Source: Dyadobacter flavalbus (GTDB taxonomy: Bacteria; Bacteroidota; Bacteroidia; Cytophagales; Spirosomataceae). From it: a stretch of 64,000 nucleotides of DNA. Numbering within the stretch: the stretch's first letter is position 1; each line of letters opens with the position of its first letter. The stretch is taken from positions 1-64,000 of the forward strand of contig NZ_VBSN01000059.1 in NCBI RefSeq assembly GCF_006149045.1, given 5' to 3'. A program made the position numbers and the translations under genes. Positions 644 to 60,182 of the stretch are shown piece by piece. The notes beneath the pieces are model-generated. The model had not been told where the DNA came from. It saw only the letters and a program-made list of their open reading frames with translations, and made no database searches.

Positions 644-3006
644 TATTTTAACTGCTCCTCAAACAACTTCAGAATCCGTTTGTATTCGTCCGTCCACGAA
701 GAGGCTTCTGTAAATGCATGATCTTCCATCGGGTAGGAGGCAAGTTCCCAGTTATCTTTTCCCAATTCGATCAGCCTTTGCGACAATCGCACTACATCCT
801 GATAATGCACGTTCACATCGAGCATGCCGTGACAGATCAGCAAATGGTTTTTCAGACCGGCCGCATGATAAATCGGTGAACTTCTTCTGTAAGCCAGACT
901 GTCTGTTTGCGGGAGATTCAGGATATTGGAGGTGTATCCTTGATTATAGGCCGACCAGTCTGTTACGGGCCGCAAAGCGGCGCCGGCCCTGAAAACGTCC
1001 GGAGTTGTAAACAGGGCCATTAATGTGATAAATCCGCCGTAAGAACCGCCGTAAATCCCTATTTTTTCAGGATTGATATTGTAATTGCTGATCAGCCATT
1101 TGGCTCCGTCCGTATGATCCGTCAGATCTTTTCCGCCCATATGCCTGTAAATTCCCGTACGCCAGTCGCGTCCGTAGCCGGAACTTGCGCGGTAATCCAT
1201 ATCCAGCACGGTATAACCCAGATCGGTGAGAAGATTATTGAACATATATTCGCGGAAGTACTGGCTCCACCAATGGTGCGCATTCTGGAGATAGCCCGCA
1301 CCGTGGACAAAAATCACCGCTTTGCCGTTTGATTTCACAGGTTCGTAAACTCTTGCATAAACCTCTTTTTCATCACTCGATTTGAAAGTCACAATTTTTG
1401 CCTTTCGCCAGGCATAAGAGTTGAATTCTGTGGAAGTGGAATGGGTAATCTGTTCCGGTTTGGCCATTTCGCCGGATTTCGGGTTTTTCATGATGTACAG
1501 TTCCCACGGCGTGTTGCTGTTGGAATAGCGAAGTGCAATGTTCCTTTCATCCGGTGACAAGGTTACTTCATGCGCGCCGGGATTATGCGTAAGGCGGGTG
1601 CGGTTTCCGCCCTTGGCCGACATTCGGTATACATGCTGCTCGCCGGGATGTACTTCATTGGTTATCAAATAGAAATGCTTTTTATTGGCAGAAAGTATCA
1701 CGTTCTGTACTTCAAACTTTCCGGCTGTCAGAGCTGTTTTTACACCCGTCACAACATCCATGGCATAAAGGTGCGAATAGCCTGTTTCTTCGCTCTGGAA
1801 ATAAAAAGTACGATTGTCGAGCCAGCCGGAAACGCCTGGGCTCAACGGATAATTTCCGATTCCCGGCCCGCCGATCCATGCTTCATCGCGTTGCCTGTCC
1901 AGTAATTTCAGCGAAAGCGAATCCGGGTCAAATGCCATAATCCAGCGGTCTTTGTTGTCGGTTGAACGGATGATCACCACGGCCTGCTGCCCGTTTTCAG
2001 ACCAGTACGGACCGTGAAAAATGACTTTTCTGTCGATTTGGGCTGTATCCCGTTTCGGATAATCTTTAAGAAAGTCCGGCTTATTGCGGATGCCCGGAAT
2101 GTCTTTTACACTAACCATCCGGGCCGTGTCTTTTTTTACATCATAAACCCAGAATTCATATTCCGAAGCCGGCGCCCCGACTTTTGTCCTGCCCGGAATA
2201 TCCTCCGTAAAGCCCGATTCGGTGACGTATTCCGGAATGTTTGTGGTTTTGGCAGATTTATCCGGTTTGGTCAGGCGATACGTTACAAAGCGATTGTCCG
2301 GGCTTGCCTGCTGATTGGAAACGGTTTTTTCGCCTAAATAAATTTCTTTCAGATACGCGGGTTTTTCTGCTTCCGAAATTTTCTTGCCTGCATCTTTTTT
2401 GCTTTTTCTTTCCTGTAAAACCTTGAAAAGCGCCAGTTGTTCGGCTTCCAGAAATTTCTCAGACGCATCCGGCTTTGGTTCGGACTTTTTATGGCCGGTT
2501 TTAAAGTCCGTCAGCTGCGACAAAAGCCCGGATGCAAGCGAAATACTGAAAAGATTGTTGCCTCGCCTGAAAACCACACTTTTTTCATCGCCGCTAAATT
2601 CAGGGTCCTGTTCTTTCTCGACTGTGTTTGTAAGCTGCCGAATGCTGAAATCCTTGTAGCTGACCAGAAAAATATCGTCGTTTTTTTCATACAGTCTTGC
2701 GGTATGAAGTCGGTTATAAACACCGTTTTTCCCGGGCATTCTTTTGCGGTCTTCGAGCGTGACTTTGCTGATTTTTTTAGTGGCAAGCGAATAGTTATAT
2801 AAGGAATCGTCCGGATTTTTATCCGGGTTCCAGTCAAAGTAAACCGAAGCCGAATTGTCCGCCCAGGTTATATCCGAAGGCGAGGTTCCGATCCACATTT
2901 TGGGATCTCTCATGATTTTTTCAACAGTGAGCGGAGCAAGAGACTGTGCCGAAAGCGAGGCATTTGCAAAAAGCAGGAACAGGAGAAAATGGATGCGGTA
3001 ATTCAT
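643..3006 (-). CDS. S9 family (dipeptidyl peptidase IV-like) exported serine peptidase
   Basis: A 787-residue protein with a signal peptide (about residues 1-20, ending ...LSAQ). It then has an eight-bladed-propeller-type N-terminal half, rich in repeated strands, and a C-terminal alpha/beta hydrolase domain from about residue 560. The catalytic triad can be read directly: Ser655 in GGSYGG, Asp730 in HGMLDVNVHYQD and His763 in EDHAF. Length and motif order are normal for prolyl oligopeptidases/DPP IV, which clip N-terminal dipeptides or short peptides in the periplasm. It is monocistronic and convergent with the upstream stress gene. Exact substrate preference cannot be seen; the conserved Glu motif of true DPP IV was not identified. 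Confidence 0.9.
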   Translation of the reverse strand: MNYRIHFLLFLLFANASLSAQSLAPLTVEKIMRDPKMWIGTSPSDITWADNSASVYFDWNPDKNPDDSLYNYSLATKKISKVTLEDRKRMPGKNGVYNRLHTARLYEKNDDIFLVSYKDFSIRQLTNTVEKEQDPEFSGDEKSVVFRRGNNLFSISLASGLLSQLTDFKTGHKKSEPKPDASEKFLEAEQLALFKVLQERKSKKDAGKKISEAEKPAYLKEIYLGEKTVSNQQASPDNRFVTYRLTKPDKSAKTTNIPEYVTESGFTEDIPGRTKVGAPASEYEFWVYDVKKDTARMVSVKDIPGIRNKPDFLKDYPKRDTAQIDRKVIFHGPYWSENGQQAVVIIRSTDNKDRWIMAFDPDSLSLKLLDRQRDEAWIGGPGIGNYPLSPGVSGWLDNRTFYFQSEETGYSHLYAMDVVTGVKTALTAGKFEVQNVILSANKKHFYLITNEVHPGEQHVYRMSAKGGNRTRLTHNPGAHEVTLSPDERNIALRYSNSNTPWELYIMKNPKSGEMAKPEQITHSTSTEFNSYAWRKAKIVTFKSSDEKEVYARVYEPVKSNGKAVIFVHGAGYLQNAHHWWSQYFREYMFNNLLTDLGYTVLDMDYRASSGYGRDWRTGIYRHMGGKDLTDHTDGAKWLISNYNINPEKIGIYGGSYGGFITLMALFTTPDVFRAGAALRPVTDWSAYNQGYTSNILNLPQTDSLAYRRSSPIYHAAGLKNHLLICHGMLDVNVHYQDVVRLSQRLIELGKDNWELASYPMEDHAFTEASSWTDEYKRILKLFEEQLK

Positions 3007-55246: not shown

Positions 55247-57520
55247 ATGGCTTTTGACTTAGACATGATTAAGGGCGTTTATGCCCGTATGCAGGAAAGA
55301 GTAGAAGCTGCTCGTAAAATTGAAGGGCGGCCTTTAACCTTGGCAGAGAAGATTTTATACTCCCACTTGTGGGAAGGAACGCCAACGCAGGTTTACGAGC
55401 GTGGCAAATCTTATGTGGATTTTGCCCCGGACCGTGTAGCCATGCAGGATGCTACAGCTCAGATGGCCCTTTTGCAGTTTATGCAAGCCGGAAGACCGCA
55501 GGTCGCAGTTCCTTCAACCGTGCACTGTGACCACCTTATTCAGGCGGAAGTAGGTGCATCGCAGGACTTGAAAAATGCAGTTGATAAAAATAAAGAGGTT
55601 TACGATTTTCTTTCGTCTGTCTCAAACAAATATGGTTTAGGTTTCTGGAAAGCAGGCGCCGGTATTATCCATCAGGTTGTGCTTGAAAATTATGCATTTC
55701 CCGGCGGTATGATGATCGGTACCGATTCACATACACCAAATGCAGGCGGCTTGGGAATGATCGCAATCGGTGTAGGCGGTGCAGATGCAAGTGACGTGAT
55801 GTCAGGCCTTGCATGGGAGCTGAAAATGCCAAGATTGATCGGTGTGAAACTGACCGGCAAACTGAGCGGGTGGACGGCTGCGAAAGATGTAATCCTTTGG
55901 GTTGCAGGCCAGCTGACTGTAAAAGGAGGAACCGGGTACATTGTTGAGTACTTCGGCGAAGGTGCTGAAAGCATCTCGGCAACAGGTAAAGCAACCATCT
56001 GTAACATGGGTGCTGAAATCGGAGCTACAACTTCCATTTTTGCTTATGATCAGAGAAGTGCCGCTTATCTGAGAGCAACGGAAAGAGCAGATATTGCTGA
56101 TGCAGCAGACGCAATAAAAGAAAATCTTCGTTCAGATGAAGAAGTTTATGCAGATCCTGCCAGATATTTTGACCAGCTGATTGAACTAGATCTTTCTGCA
56201 CTTGAACCGCATATTAACGGTCCGTTTACTCCGGATCTGGCATGGCCGCTTTCCAAATTTGCAACAGCTGTCAAGGAAAACGGATGGCCGGAAGTACTTT
56301 CGGTGGGTCTGATTGGTTCCTGTACAAACTCTTCTTATGAAGATGTGAGCCGCGCGGCTTCCCTTGCTCAGCAGGCAGTGGATAAAAAGCTGGCGGTCAG
56401 CTCGGAATATACCATTACACCGGGATCAGAGCTTGTTCGTTATACAGTGGATCGCGATGGTTACCTGGATACCTTTGCACAAATTGGCGGTGTTGTACTG
56501 GCAAATGCTTGTGGACCTTGTATTGGTCAGTGGGCTCGTCATGGTGCGGAAAAAGGAGAGAAAAACTCCATTATCACTTCCTTCAACCGTAACTTCTCGA
56601 AACGTGCGGATGGAAACCCGAATACGCATTCATTTGTAGCTTCGCCGGAAATCGTAACTGCAATGGCTATTGCGGGACGGCTTACCTTCGATCCGCGTAC
56701 CGATAAGCTGATCAATAAAGATGGTGAAGAAGTAATGCTGGACGAACCAAGCGGACTGGAATTGCCGATCAAAGGATATGCAGTGGAGGATGCAGGCTAT
56801 CAGGCTCCGGCAGAAGATCCGAGCCAGGTTCAGGTTCTGGTAAGCCCGACTTCTGACCGTCTGCAGCTTCTTGCACCTTTTCCGGAATGGGAGGGAACTG
56901 ATCTGAAAGGCTTGAAATTGCTTATCAAGGCGAAAGGCAAATGTACAACGGATCATATTTCAATGGCCGGACCCTGGCTGAAATACCGCGGACATCTTGA
57001 TAATATTTCCAATAACATGCTGATCGGTGCGGTAAATTATTATAACGAGAAAACCAATACCGTTAAAAATCAGCTTACAGGCCAGTATAGCGAAGTTCCT
57101 GCTGTTCAGCGCGATTACAAAGCAAATGGAATCGGAACTATCGTAGTGGGCGATGAAAACTATGGTGAAGGTTCATCTCGTGAGCATGCAGCAATGGAGC
57201 CACGCTTCCTTGGAGTTCGTGCAATTTTGACAAAATCATTTGCCCGTATCCATGAAACAAACCTTAAAAAGCAGGGAATGCTCGCTTTGACTTTCGCCAA
57301 CACAGCGGATTATGACAAGATTCAGGAAGATGATGTGATTGATATCCTGGGCCTGCAAAGTTTTTCAGAAGGTCAGCCATTGACCATCGTTCTGCATCAC
57401 AGCGACGGAAGTACAGAAGAGTTCCCGGTTAACCATACCTATAACGAACAGCAAATCGAATGGTTCAAGGCGGGTTCTGCATTGAATATTATTCGCAAGT
57501 CTGTCGGCGCAAGTGTGTAG
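55247..57520 (+). CDS. acn: Aconitate hydratase
   Basis: A 757-residue TCA-cycle enzyme of mitochondrial-type length. The 4Fe-4S ligands can be read: Cys359 in GSCTNSS and Cys422/Cys425 in [10 protein letters not shown]. The swivel domain with [19 protein letters not shown] near 633 carries the catalytic Ser of the SREH loop. It converts citrate to isocitrate via cis-aconitate. It is followed by a strong terminator, after which the IS110 element begins, so the insertion did not disrupt the gene. Confidence 0.97.
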
Positions 57521-57543: not shown

Positions 57544-57582
57544 ACAAAAAACCTCCTGTTTTAAAAGCAGGAGGTTTTTTGT
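57544..57582 (+). terminator. Strong rho-independent terminator after aconitase
   Basis: A 15-bp perfect stem, ACAAAAAACCTCCTG (57544-57558) with CAGGAGGTTTTTTGT (57568-57582), and a 9-nt loop. It lies 23 bp after the aconitase stop and 44 bp before the IS110 element. Confidence 0.92.
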
Positions 57583-57629
57583 TTGATGATTTTCATGTTT
57601 TGTAATTGGTGCATGTAAGAGAGCTCCTC

Positions 57630-57840
57630 GTATGTTGTTAAAGATTTGACATTTCCGATAAAGATCTTGAATTTGGAGTGTGAAGGGAAGAGAGCAGATA
57701 CTCCTTGGCAACAGTCTTGTATGCCGTTCCGGAGCGATTCCTCCTTTCGCATTTCCAGATTAATCAGAACAGTACCAAAGGCCTTTCCTGGATGGAAAGC
57801 AGCCAGTATTACGAGGGAAGTTTCACTCTTTAGGATCCAA
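57630..57840 (+). ncRNA. Candidate IS110 bridge RNA in the left-end leader
   Basis: IS110 elements are known to encode a bridge RNA in a non-coding end that pairs with both target and donor DNA. This leader has the right place and length. It can form three stem-loops: GGAGT/ACTCC (57675-57704, 20-nt loop), GGCA-ACA/TGT-TGCC (57707-57725), and GGC-CTTTCC/GGAAAG-GCC (57780-57804). It also holds 8-nt copies of flanking or terminal DNA: AAGAGAGC (57688-57695, as in the left flank 57617-57624), TCCGGAGC (57728-57735, as in the right flank 59001-59008) and ACAGTACC (57769-57776, as at the right end 58993-59000). A near copy of the left end, CTTGTATG, lies at 57716-57723. Assignment of these to guide loops is inference. 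Confidence 0.5.
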
Positions 57841-57844
57841 AGAA

Positions 57845-58921
57845 ATGGAAAAGTCAAAGACATCAATTCGTCAGCATGTGGGAATTGATATGAGCAAAGA
57901 TTCATTTGTTGCCGCTGTTGCTTTACAGCACGCAGATTTGACGGTGAGCATAGTGAGCACAAAGAAATTTACAAATAGTGCACCCGGTTTTGAAAGTCTG
58001 CTCAGGTGGACAAAGGTATTTACATCGCCTGAGCTTCCGTTTGGTTTTGCCATGGAAGCGACCGGGGTCTACTATGAACCTTTATGTTACTGGCTATTTG
58101 AGCGCGGCCTTCCGGTCAGTGTGCAGTTAGCCCAAAAGGTGAAACATTACGGGCAATCTTTAAATATAAAGACCAAGACAGACCGCTCGGATGCAGCGGT
58201 GATTGCCCGGATGGGCTTGGAGCGAAAACTGAAAGCCTGGAATGCAGGTAGCGCAGCTTTACGGCAGATCAAGCTGGTGCTGCGTGAAAGAGAGGCCCTG
58301 ATAGAGGAAGTCAAAGGTGTGAAGAACCAGTTGCACGCGCTCAGCCATGCTCACCAGGCGCCTGTCCCTATCCTGGAGCGGTTGAAAAAACGCCTTGATT
58401 TTATGGCCCAGCAGCTGGCCGAAGTGGAAGCCGGGCTTACGGAGCTGGTAAAAGCAGATGCGCCTTTGAAAGAAAGGGTCGAGCATGTGTGCACCATCAA
58501 AGGGGTTGGCTTTATCAGCGCTATAACCGTTATTGCCGAAACAAACGGTTTTGCTTTGTTTGGCAGTCAGCGGCAACTGGTCAGTTATGCAGGCTATGAT
58601 GTTGTGCAAAACCAGTCGGGTTCATCACTCAACGGCAAAACAAGGATATCCAAGAAGGGCAACAGGCGGATCCGCAAAGCGCTGTACTTCCCTGCCATCA
58701 CAGCAAGCATGTACGATGCCAGGCATAAAGCGATCTTCGGGAAAATCTATCAGAAAACAGCTATAAAAATGAAGGGTTCCGTAGCCATTCAGCGCAGGCT
58801 TCTGATCCTGATTTACACACTCTATAAAAACAACGAACCCTATGATGAGCACCGACTCAACCAAGCAGCAAGAGCAACAACAAAAATTAGGCAGGACCAG
58901 ATCGAAACCTGCCCTGCCTAA
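57845..58921 (+). CDS. IS110-family transposase/recombinase
   Basis: 358 residues, full length for the family. The N-terminal DEDD RuvC-like domain is visible: Asp in VGIDMSKDSF near residue 15, Glu in MEATGVYYE near 72, and the Asp pair in KTDRSDAAVIARMG near 117. A coiled-coil middle (about 140-205) leads to the C-terminal transposase_20 domain (VCTIKGVGFISAITVIAETN near 218), whose catalytic Ser is expected in the VVQNQSGSS region near 258. No frameshift or internal stop, so it may be active. The stop codon is part of a hairpin. Confidence 0.95.
   Translation: MEKSKTSIRQHVGIDMSKDSFVAAVALQHADLTVSIVSTKKFTNSAPGFESLLRWTKVFTSPELPFGFAMEATGVYYEPLCYWLFERGLPVSVQLAQKVKHYGQSLNIKTKTDRSDAAVIARMGLERKLKAWNAGSAALRQIKLVLREREALIEEVKGVKNQLHALSHAHQAPVPILERLKKRLDFMAQQLAEVEAGLTELVKADAPLKERVEHVCTIKGVGFISAITVIAETNGFALFGSQRQLVSYAGYDVVQNQSGSSLNGKTRISKKGNRRIRKALYFPAITASMYDARHKAIFGKIYQKTAIKMKGSVAIQRRLLILIYTLYKNNEPYDEHRLNQAARATTKIRQDQIETCPA
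58887..58921 (+). terminator. Hairpin overlapping the end of the transposase gene
   Basis: TTAGGCAGG (58887-58895) pairs with CCTGCCTAA (58913-58921), 9 bp with a 17-nt loop. The right arm contains the stop codon. No clear T-tract follows. It may end the transcript or protect it. Confidence 0.5.
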
Positions 58922-58999
58922 ACAGCATAGCCAAAGATGACTTGCTTCTTGTTTGCAAAGATAAAAAACTCCCGGAATTATTGGATTTTAACACAGTAC

Positions 59000-59656
59000 C
59001 TCCGGAGCTAAGAATTGTTTCTCACATTTTGCATTGCTACAAACAGTTTGGCTCCGGAGCTAAGAATTGTTTCTCACATTTTGCATTGCTACAAACAGTT
59101 TGGCTCCGGAGCTAAGAATTGTTTCTCACATTTTGCATTGCTACAAACAGTTTGGCTCCTCCGGAGCTTTTTTGGAATCGGCTCCAGAGGAGCCTTTTGT
59201 TTATAAAACCACGAATGTCGGCATTCACAAGCCCGCTCCGGAGCTAAGAATTGTTTCTCACATTTTGCATTGCTACAAACAGTTTGGCTCCTCCGGAGCT
59301 TTTTTGGAATCGGCTCCAGAGGAGCCTTTTGTTTATAAAACCACGAATGTCGGCATTCACAAGCCCGCTCCGGAGGAGCCCTCTGATTATAGGAAACAGG
59401 AATAGCGGCAATTCACAAGCCGGCTCCGGAGGAGCCTTTTGTTTATAGCAATAGGAATGTTGGTAATTTACAGGTCGGCTCCGGAGGAGCCCTCTGTTTA
59501 TAGAAACAGGAATATCGGCAATTCACAAGCCGGCTCCAGAGGAGCCTTTTGTTTATAAAACCACGAATGTCGGCATTCACAAGCCCGCTCCGGAGGAGCC
59601 CTCTGATTATAGGAAACAGGAATACCGGCAATTCACAAGCCGGCTCCGGAGGAGCC
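59000..59656. repeat. Array of palindromic and tandem repeats next to the IS110 element
   Basis: Two unit types. Type A: 52-bp units starting CTCCGGAGCTAAG at 59000, 59052, 59104 and again 59236, each followed by the next CTCC exactly 52 bp on. A 132-bp block (59104-59235) is duplicated in 59236-59367. Type B: hairpins GGCTCC-n3-GGAGCC starting near 59180, 59312, 59366, 59422, 59477, 59532, 59586 and 59642, from 59312 on at 54-56 bp spacing. Linkers alternate between a TTTTGTTTATA form and a CTCTGATTATA/CTCTGTTTATA form. The 52- and 55-bp periods are not multiples of three, so the short frames in it are not genes. Linkers are repeated too, so this is not CRISPR. Fills the gap up to the lspA stop. 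Confidence 0.85.
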
Positions 59657-59672
59657 TCCTGCTTCTGAATAC

Positions 59673-60182
59673 CTATAAAAATCGTTTCAACTGCCGATTA
59701 TAGGACTGGATCAAAAAAATAAACATTCCGGTCATAATGGAAACATCTGCCATATTGAAAATACCCGTTTGAAAAAAACCGAAATTGATATGCAGAAAAT
59801 CCGTCACTGAACCATGAACAAGTCGGTCATAAATATTGCCGATCCCGCCGCCGATGGCAAAGCTGAGCGCCAGCGCACTCATTAACGTCAGATTCCTTTT
59901 CAGTAAAATGTAGGCAATGCCGAAAAACAACGCGATCAATGGAATAATGGACAAAACTAGAATCTTAATTGACTGCGGCAACGTGCTGCCGATACTCAGA
60001 AAAGCACCCGTATTTTCAACGTAAGTAATGGTGACATAATTTTCAATAACGCTGATTGTCTCGTAAAATCCAACATTCTTCCTGATGGCATTTTTGGAAA
60101 TCTGGTCACATCCTATATTGGCGATTAGAATAATCAGTATGGCAATATTGCGTGCAGTACGGTCCGATTTTAACTTTTGCAT
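59673..60182 (-). CDS. lspA: Lipoprotein signal peptidase (signal peptidase II)
   Basis: A 169-residue inner-membrane protein with four transmembrane helices. The active-site aspartates are in GNIYDRLVHGSVTDF (Asp119 and Asp128) and FNMADVSI (Asp146); ENTGAF near 56 is also conserved. It cleaves lipoprotein signal peptides before the lipid-bearing Cys and so serves the many lipoproteins in this window (SusD, M1 peptidase, TPR protein). Its start codon directly follows the stop of the DUF1080 gene without a gap, so the two are translated from one mRNA. Downstream lies the palindrome array. Confidence 0.95.
   Translation of the reverse strand: MQKLKSDRTARNIAILIILIANIGCDQISKNAIRKNVGFYETISVIENYVTITYVENTGAFLSIGSTLPQSIKILVLSIIPLIALFFGIAYILLKRNLTLMSALALSFAIGGGIGNIYDRLVHGSVTDFLHINFGFFQTGIFNMADVSIMTGMFIFLIQSYNRQLKRFL

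What the first reader, a model, noticed from the sequence alone, without database searches (positions are those of the whole stretch)
57630..57840. Leader of the IS110 element carries short copies of both flanks and both ends: candidate bridge RNA
Three 8-nt exact matches (AAGAGAGC to left flank, TCCGGAGC to right flank, ACAGTACC to right end) and one 7-of-8 match (CTTGTATG to left end) lie in about 210 bp that also form stem-loops. AAGAGAGC lies in the 20-nt loop of the GGAGT/ACTCC hairpin. By chance a given 8-mer would match in such a leader with a probability of about 0.3 percent; I chose the 8-mers after looking, so the true significance is lower. The order (target, donor, target, donor) differs from IS621, where target and donor loops are separate.
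Basis: partly seen in the sequence, partly recalled or inferred. Interest (0 to 1): 0.8.

Follow-up and report, generated by a model that had tools for sequence, protein, structure and literature searches.

The report
Bridge RNA of a repeat-targeting IS110 element

Summary
The element (57627-59001) encodes an IS110 recombinase with its catalytic residues. Its leader carries an IS621-type bridge RNA, about 57680-57830, in canonical order: LTG GATACTCCT 57697-57705, RTG GTTCCGGAG 57726-57734, LDG ACAGTAC 57769-57775, RDG TACGAG 57810-57815. AAGAGAGC and CTTGTATG fall in conserved scaffold; the true RDG was missed. A covariance model from nine homologues without the window has its best window hit at 57680-57850 (E 7e-4; next 4.5). 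In 19 leaders (window included) guide columns follow each element's own target and donor (LTG, RTG, LDG: 0 of 20,000 permutations; RD-RDG 98.9% paired). The target GCTC-CT-CCGGAGC is a repeat present 101 times in the host genome (control 0); the closest relative found also sits in an abundant palindrome. A 113-bp left-end remnant elsewhere ends at RTG, suggesting guide-flank deletion (one case). Weak points: the window's own LT matches its LTG at only 5 of 9 positions; RNA and activity are not shown. New member of a known kind.

The parts
57617..57626 (+). left target half (LT), AAGAGAGCTC, host DNA next to the left core
   Evidence: alignment of the end with homologues LT-CT-CGTATGTT
57627..57628 (+). 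left core dinucleotide CT
   Evidence: CT before CGTATG, CCTATG or TGTAT in 18 of 19 left ends, window included; L086 has TT
57629..57636 (+). right donor half (RD), CGTATGTT, start of the element
   Evidence: A1 columns 3-10, mostly conserved
57645..57675 (+). possible Bacteroidota-type promoter TTTG-N19-TGAATTTG (weak; one mismatch to TAnnTTTG, a consensus recalled from memory)
   Evidence: exact box within -24..+6 of the model start in 6 of 25 leaders, shuffled mean 0.45 and maximum 3; the window's box is not exact
57680..57830 (+). bridge RNA (bounds approximate, inferred from the covariance model and the RDG)
57688..57695 (+). AAGAGAGC: scaffold, not a guide
   Evidence: columns 84-92 of A1
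57697..57705 (+). left target guide LTG GATACTCCT
   Evidence: placed by alignment; fixed-column test over 19 leaders; own LT match weak, 5 of 9
   Evidence: homologous to helix 3 of A3, 100% of cells paired, 6 of 7 pairs with a change on both sides
57726..57734 (+). right target guide RTG GTTCCGGAG, complement of CTCCGGAGC with one G-U wobble
   Evidence: own match 8 of 10, 9 with wobble
57769..57775 (+). left donor guide LDG ACAGTAC
   Evidence: the two positions that vary most (6 and 8) follow own LD in 16 of 16
57810..57815 (+). right donor guide RDG TACGAG, complement of CTCGTA
   Evidence: pairing found unprompted by RNAalifold, counted
57816..57816 (+). candidate handshake-guide base G, complement of the last LT base C
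   Evidence: 11 of 19 elements, permutation P 0.007
57845..58921 (+). IS110 recombinase, 358 aa, with D15, E71, D113, D116, S258
58991..58999 (+). left donor half (LD), right end of the element, ACACAGTAC
59000..59001 (+). right core dinucleotide CT
59002..59008 (+). right target half (RT) CCGGAGC, host repeat
58999..59690 (+). array of palindromic repeats into which the element is inserted (52-bp units, then units spaced 110-132 bp)

Best explanation
The leader encodes the bridge RNA of an IS110-group insertion sequence. The RNA folds into two internal loops. Loop 1 holds LTG and RTG, which pair with the bottom and top strands of the host target GCTC-CT-CCGGAGC. Loop 2 holds LDG and RDG, which pair with the element's own joined ends ACAGTAC-CT-CGTATG. 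The DEDD/serine recombinase encoded just downstream would use this RNA to bring donor and target together and exchange strands at the shared CT core, inserting the element into a palindromic repeat. Shown here by sequence: recombinase family and catalytic residues, conserved RNA structure in homologues, four guides that follow target and donor across homologues, target equal to an abundant repeat. Inferred: transcription, binding, the reaction itself.
For: Recombinase: NCBIfam 'IS110 family RNA-guided transposase' 185.5 bits against a cut-off of 140, both Pfam domains, IS621 chain 8wt6 1.6e-27 and ISCro4 9t56 3.1e-28. RNA: nine homologues give 50 pairs, 32 with a change on both sides, 92.4% of cells paired against 45-54% when slid; a model from those nine, window excluded, hits 57680-57850 at E 7e-4, next hit 4.5. 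Guides in fixed columns: LTG own 6.11 of 11 against 3.80 for others' targets (19 elements), RTG 6.56 of 10 against 4.09 (16), LDG 6.81 of 8 against 5.62 (16), each 0 of 20,000 permutations. Opposite-orientation controls give no signal. RD-RDG 98.9% paired, eight G-C to C-G changes. Target: GCTCCTCCGGAGC 101 times in 6.48 Mb, 0 for the reversed pattern; a partial second copy of the element lies in another such repeat.
Against: The window's LT matches its LTG only at CTCCT, 5 of 9, and in the search of its whole leader its best LT match (6 of 9) lies elsewhere; the second site matches LTG 7 of 9 (read by eye). Single-sequence folding is only moderately stable (z -1.45, 12 of 200 shuffles as good). 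Rfam has no match at gathering threshold. The model E-value is rough and not extreme. In the RD-RDG count the measures by pairs and by pair types do not exceed the shuffles (116 and 499 of 500). The handshake base of the target loop does not fit the window. No RNA or activity data. Only one full copy in the genome, so targets of this exact element rest on two sites. Elements are related, so permutation counts are not strict probabilities.
Confidence: 0.94

Rival explanations
1. The 8-mer matches are chance in an ordinary leader; there is no guide RNA.
Against: Structure with compensatory change, homologue-only model hit, guide columns following own targets and donors.
Confidence: 0.02
2. A bridge RNA in the order the reader proposed (target, donor, target, donor), a new architecture.
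For: Four short matches in that order exist.
Against: AAGAGAGC and CTTGTATG sit in columns conserved in leaders with other targets and ends; LDG and RDG lie together in the second loop.
Confidence: 0.02
3. A bridge RNA that has decayed: the left target guide no longer fits well, so the element is stuck. (Compatible with the best explanation of what the RNA is; differs on present activity.)
For: LTG to LT only 5 of 9 in the window; one full copy and one remnant in the genome.
Against: Open frame with the catalytic residues; the other three guides fit; the remnant's site fits LTG better (7 of 9), and the same array holds GATGCTCCT, 8 of 9 to LTG (both by eye).
Confidence: 0.15

Closest known systems
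IS621 (IS110 group, E. coli) bridge RNA: PMC11208160 (outline and passages seen) and PMC11208158 (passages seen)
   Same: RNA upstream of the recombinase; two internal loops; target guides in one, donor guides in the other; CT core; LTG and LDG pair with the bottom strand, RTG and RDG with the top strand; repetitive palindromic target; DEDD and serine residues.
   Different: Recombinase only distantly alike (E 1.6e-27); RTG about 7 nt with the core by the per-position counts, where the paper's passage uses a four-base RTG for IS621 and says some relatives have longer ones; different repeat as target; likely a Bacteroidota host (inferred).
ISPpu9, ISPpu10, ISPa11, ISRm19: IS110-family elements in REP sequences, PMC1525189 (passages seen)
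   Same: Insertion into repetitive extragenic palindromes.
   Different: Hosts in the table passage are Pseudomonas and Sinorhizobium; in the passages seen, target choice is put to the transposase, no RNA.
seekRNA of IS1111 and IS110 types, PMC11187229 (passages seen)
   Same: IS110 type: non-coding region upstream of tnp, bottom-strand match before top-strand complement.
   Different: IS1111 members have the RNA region downstream and subterminal inverted repeats usually of 11-13 bp.

Membership tests
IS110 family | DEDD RuvC-like domain plus Tnp domain with catalytic serine | tested here: met
IS110 family, IS110 group | long non-coding end upstream of the recombinase gene, short end downstream | tested here: met
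   216 bp between left core and start codon, 78 bp between stop codon and right core
IS621-type bridge RNA | conserved two-loop structure | tested here: met
   for nine homologues; for the window, with some mismatched pairs
IS621-type bridge RNA | LTG and RTG complementary to own target | tested here: inconclusive
   met across the set and for the window's RTG; the window's LTG is weak, 5 of 9
IS621-type bridge RNA | LDG and RDG complementary to own donor | tested here: met
IS621-type bridge RNA | handshake guides | tested here: inconclusive
   donor-loop base fits in the window and in 11 of 19; target-loop base fits in 10 of 15 but not in the window
IS621-type bridge RNA | RNA made, bound by recombinase, reprogrammable | not testable with these tools
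   needs experiment
IS1111 group | RNA in the downstream end | tested here: not met
   RNA upstream
IS1111 group | long subterminal inverted repeats | tested here: inconclusive
   by eye only: a 7-bp inverted match TGTTAAA between the ends, at unequal distances from the core; 7 is the low end of the 7-17 bp given in a passage of PMC11208160
REP-like target | palindromic repeat in many copies | tested here: met
   101 copies, reversed-pattern control 0

The most novel reading that the evidence does not exclude
Because the target is palindromic, the DNA of the right target guide is also a direct copy of the right flank, so an inserted element carries a built-in deletion point. The 113-bp remnant (G000:C50:264825-264937) would be the product: recombination between RTG and the flanking repeat removes the recombinase and the donor loop and leaves a left-end stub. 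This would be a routine decay path for bridge-RNA elements in palindromic repeats. It rests on one case.
Probability: 0.35. Interest if true: 0.4.

Novelty: new member of a known kind. Interest (0 to 1): 0.32.

Why it matters
It adds a well-resolved bridge RNA whose targets and guides can be read from natural copies. It suggests that the habit of IS110 elements to sit in REP palindromes, reported for proteobacteria, recurs in a distant lineage with different repeats and matching guides, and it offers a recombinase with about 100 natural target sites in one genome for tests of specificity.

Tried and rejected
AAGAGAGC as LTG in a shifted register: it ends 2 nt before the core in the flank but 8 nt before the core letters of the guide in the leader, so it would need a bulge, and the columns are conserved in leaders with other targets. 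CTTGTATG as donor guide: hairpin arm. RNAalifold on all 19 leaders found only the five RD-RDG pairs and no stem; I put this down to the mixture of subgroups and used the nine-sequence alignment A3 for structure and the five nearest leaders. The whole-leader match test has a high background (own LT 7.05 against 6.26), so the fixed-column test was made. The fold of the window alone is not convincing. A Bacteroidota promoter box is suggestive in some homologues but not exact in the window. The one genome-contig scan gave 3 loci, the best at 36% identity.

Rows dropped: searches list 44 distinct matches by my count, window included; 39 came with a locus and were oriented; 19 of these, window included, had a left end that I could recognise by eye and were used; the other 20 were dropped (ends not recognised or contig broken). 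The core of L086 was set to TT by hand. MAFFT shifts the guide of L086 (LTG) and of L085 and L113 (RTG); they were counted as they stand. In one search the target-loop test used 15 of 16 (L113 left out) with RTG strings placed by hand.

Full report
Observation. The three exact 8-mers together occur in 1 of 5000 dinucleotide shuffles of the leader, but the two flank matches singly in 6-8%. So there is a real signal, carried best by ACAGTACC.

The element. The open frame 57845-58921 (358 aa) has both IS110 Pfam domains, passes the NCBIfam model for IS110 family RNA-guided transposases with 185.5 bits against 140, and matches the solved IS621 and ISCro4 recombinases. By the alignment and the motifs the residues D15, E71, D113, D116 and S258 correspond to D11, E60, D102, D105 and S241 of IS621 as named in PMC11208158 (passages); D15 lies outside the printed alignment and is placed by motif, and the serine assumes that the PDB chain is offset by two residues. 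The own genome holds one full copy and four weak partial matches.

Ends. Homologues came from searches of 48 genus, 222 family, 395 phylum and 395 class genomes, which overlap. In 19 of 39 oriented loci, window included, the left end could be recognised as LT-CT (TT in L086) before CGTATG, CCTATG or TGTAT, and in 16 of these the right end as ACAG or similar, then CT and RT. This sets the window's core at 57627-57628 and 59000-59001 and the target as GAGCTC-CT-CCGGAGC.

Guides. In a plain MAFFT alignment of the 19 leaders the letters in fixed columns were compared with each element's own target or donor and with those of the others. LTG: own 6.11 of 11, others 3.80 (19 elements). RTG: 6.56 of 10, others 4.09 (16). 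LDG: 6.81 of 8, others 5.62 (16); its positions 6 and 8 match the own donor in 16 of 16, against 34% and 47% for others' donors. Each beats all of 20,000 permutations. Elements are related, so the permutation count is not a strict probability. In the whole-leader test the opposite orientations showed nothing (permutations as good: LT reverse complement 18898 of 20,000, RT same strand 2559, LD reverse complement 3491, RD same strand 8921). The fourth guide was found without being asked for: RNAalifold on the 19 leaders paired the element's first five bases, CTCGT in ten of them, with ACGAG near the end of the leader, and found nothing else. 98.9% of cells pair, eight sequences change G-C to C-G and two C-G to U-A, against 34-63% when slid; two of the five shuffle measures (pairs with a change on both sides, pair types) do not exceed their shuffles. 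In the window this guide is TACGAG at 57810.

Against: single elements fit poorly for LTG, notably the window itself (5 of 11, 5 of the last 9, only CTCCT), L019 and L103 (2 of 11), L089 (3 of 11); L086 also scores 3 of 11 because its row is shifted by one.

Structure. Nine leaders of one subgroup give 50 pairs, 32 with a change on both sides, 92.4% of cells paired (45-54% slid), with two stem-loops; LTG and RTG flank the inner hairpin of the first, LDG and RDG that of the second. The five leaders nearest to the window, window included, give 28 pairs, 11 with compensatory change; five of the 28 are the RD-RDG pairing. A covariance model from the nine, without the window, has its best hit in the 64-kb window at 57680-57850, 25.2 bits, E 7e-4; the only other hit listed has E 4.5. 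Over 43 loci it gave 35 matches at E up to 1; nine of them are the model's own sequences, L001 (the window's element) is among them, and a few weak ones lie on the opposite strand. Rfam has no match at gathering threshold.

AAGAGAGC falls in columns 84-92, where 14 of 19 leaders (window included) have [AG][AG]GAG, although only 2 of 19 LTs contain AGAG (rows and count; the 14 is my count from the rows). CTTGTATG is the 3' arm of the hairpin that corresponds to helix 3 (100% of cells paired). Both are scaffold.

Target. GCTCCTCCGGAGC occurs 101 times in the own genome, 0 for the reversed pattern; 30 of 48 genomes of the genus, the own one included, have it, two of them (the own one and G006) with about 100 copies; the reversed control occurs once each in two of the 48. 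The closest relative found (L084, 64% identity) is inserted at CTTCTCGAAAG, a form of a palindrome with 39 places in its genome, each read on both strands; its RTG GTTTTCGAG fits that target (7 of 10, 9 with wobble). So guide and repeat differ together between the two. IS621 and other IS110-family elements are known from REP sequences (PMC1525189, passages; PMC11208160, passages).

Remnant. 113 bp identical to window 57623-57735 lie at G000:C50:264825-264937 in another array of the same repeat. The copy begins at the repeat, runs through RD and LTG, and ends at TTCCGGAGC of RTG, where the repeat continues. The simplest account is an insertion followed by deletion between RTG and the right flank over the 8 bases TCCGGAGC. 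This rests on one case.

Handshake guides. The base after RDG complements the last base of LT in 11 of 19 elements (permutation P 0.007), in all of the five closest, window included; the base after RTG complements the last base of LD in 10 of 15 (P 0.03) but not in the window.

Mechanism and standing. The element most likely works as IS621 does. Literature searches. The search for bridge RNA with IS110 and Bacteroid- gave one review (listing only); the library lacks most subscription papers and preprints, so I make no claim that Bacteroidota bridge RNAs are undescribed.

Noticed in passing
L119 1412-2390 (G000:C1 about 973.4-974.4 kb): A Y1 transposase gene (153 aa; NCBIfam IS200/IS605 above cut-off, REP-associated tyrosine transposase below cut-off) has one GGCTCCGGAGGAGCC palindrome just upstream and six GCTCC-N-GGAGC palindromes just downstream, so it may be what spreads the repeat that the IS110 element targets. 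The loci of the other two Y1 genes found (L117, L118) show none.
   Followed up: partly
58999-59366: Three 52-bp tandem units and a perfect 132-bp tandem duplication directly beside the right end of the element.
   Followed up: partly
G000:C50:264825-264937 (L014 1501-1613): 113-bp left-end remnant of the element that stops at the right target guide.
   Followed up: partly
L110, bridge RNA matches at 2554-2719 and 2727-2826, minus strand: A homologue with a duplicated left end: a partial bridge RNA (first loop) followed by a full one.
   Followed up: no
55247-57520 and 59673-60182: The element sits between an aconitate hydratase gene and lspA (signal peptidase II), after a terminator-like hairpin at about 57546-57581 seen by eye.
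   Followed up: partly
L086 876-877 and 2214-2215: Left core reads TT and right core CT, as if the target had a TT core; its left target guide reads ATTTATT at that place.
   Followed up: no
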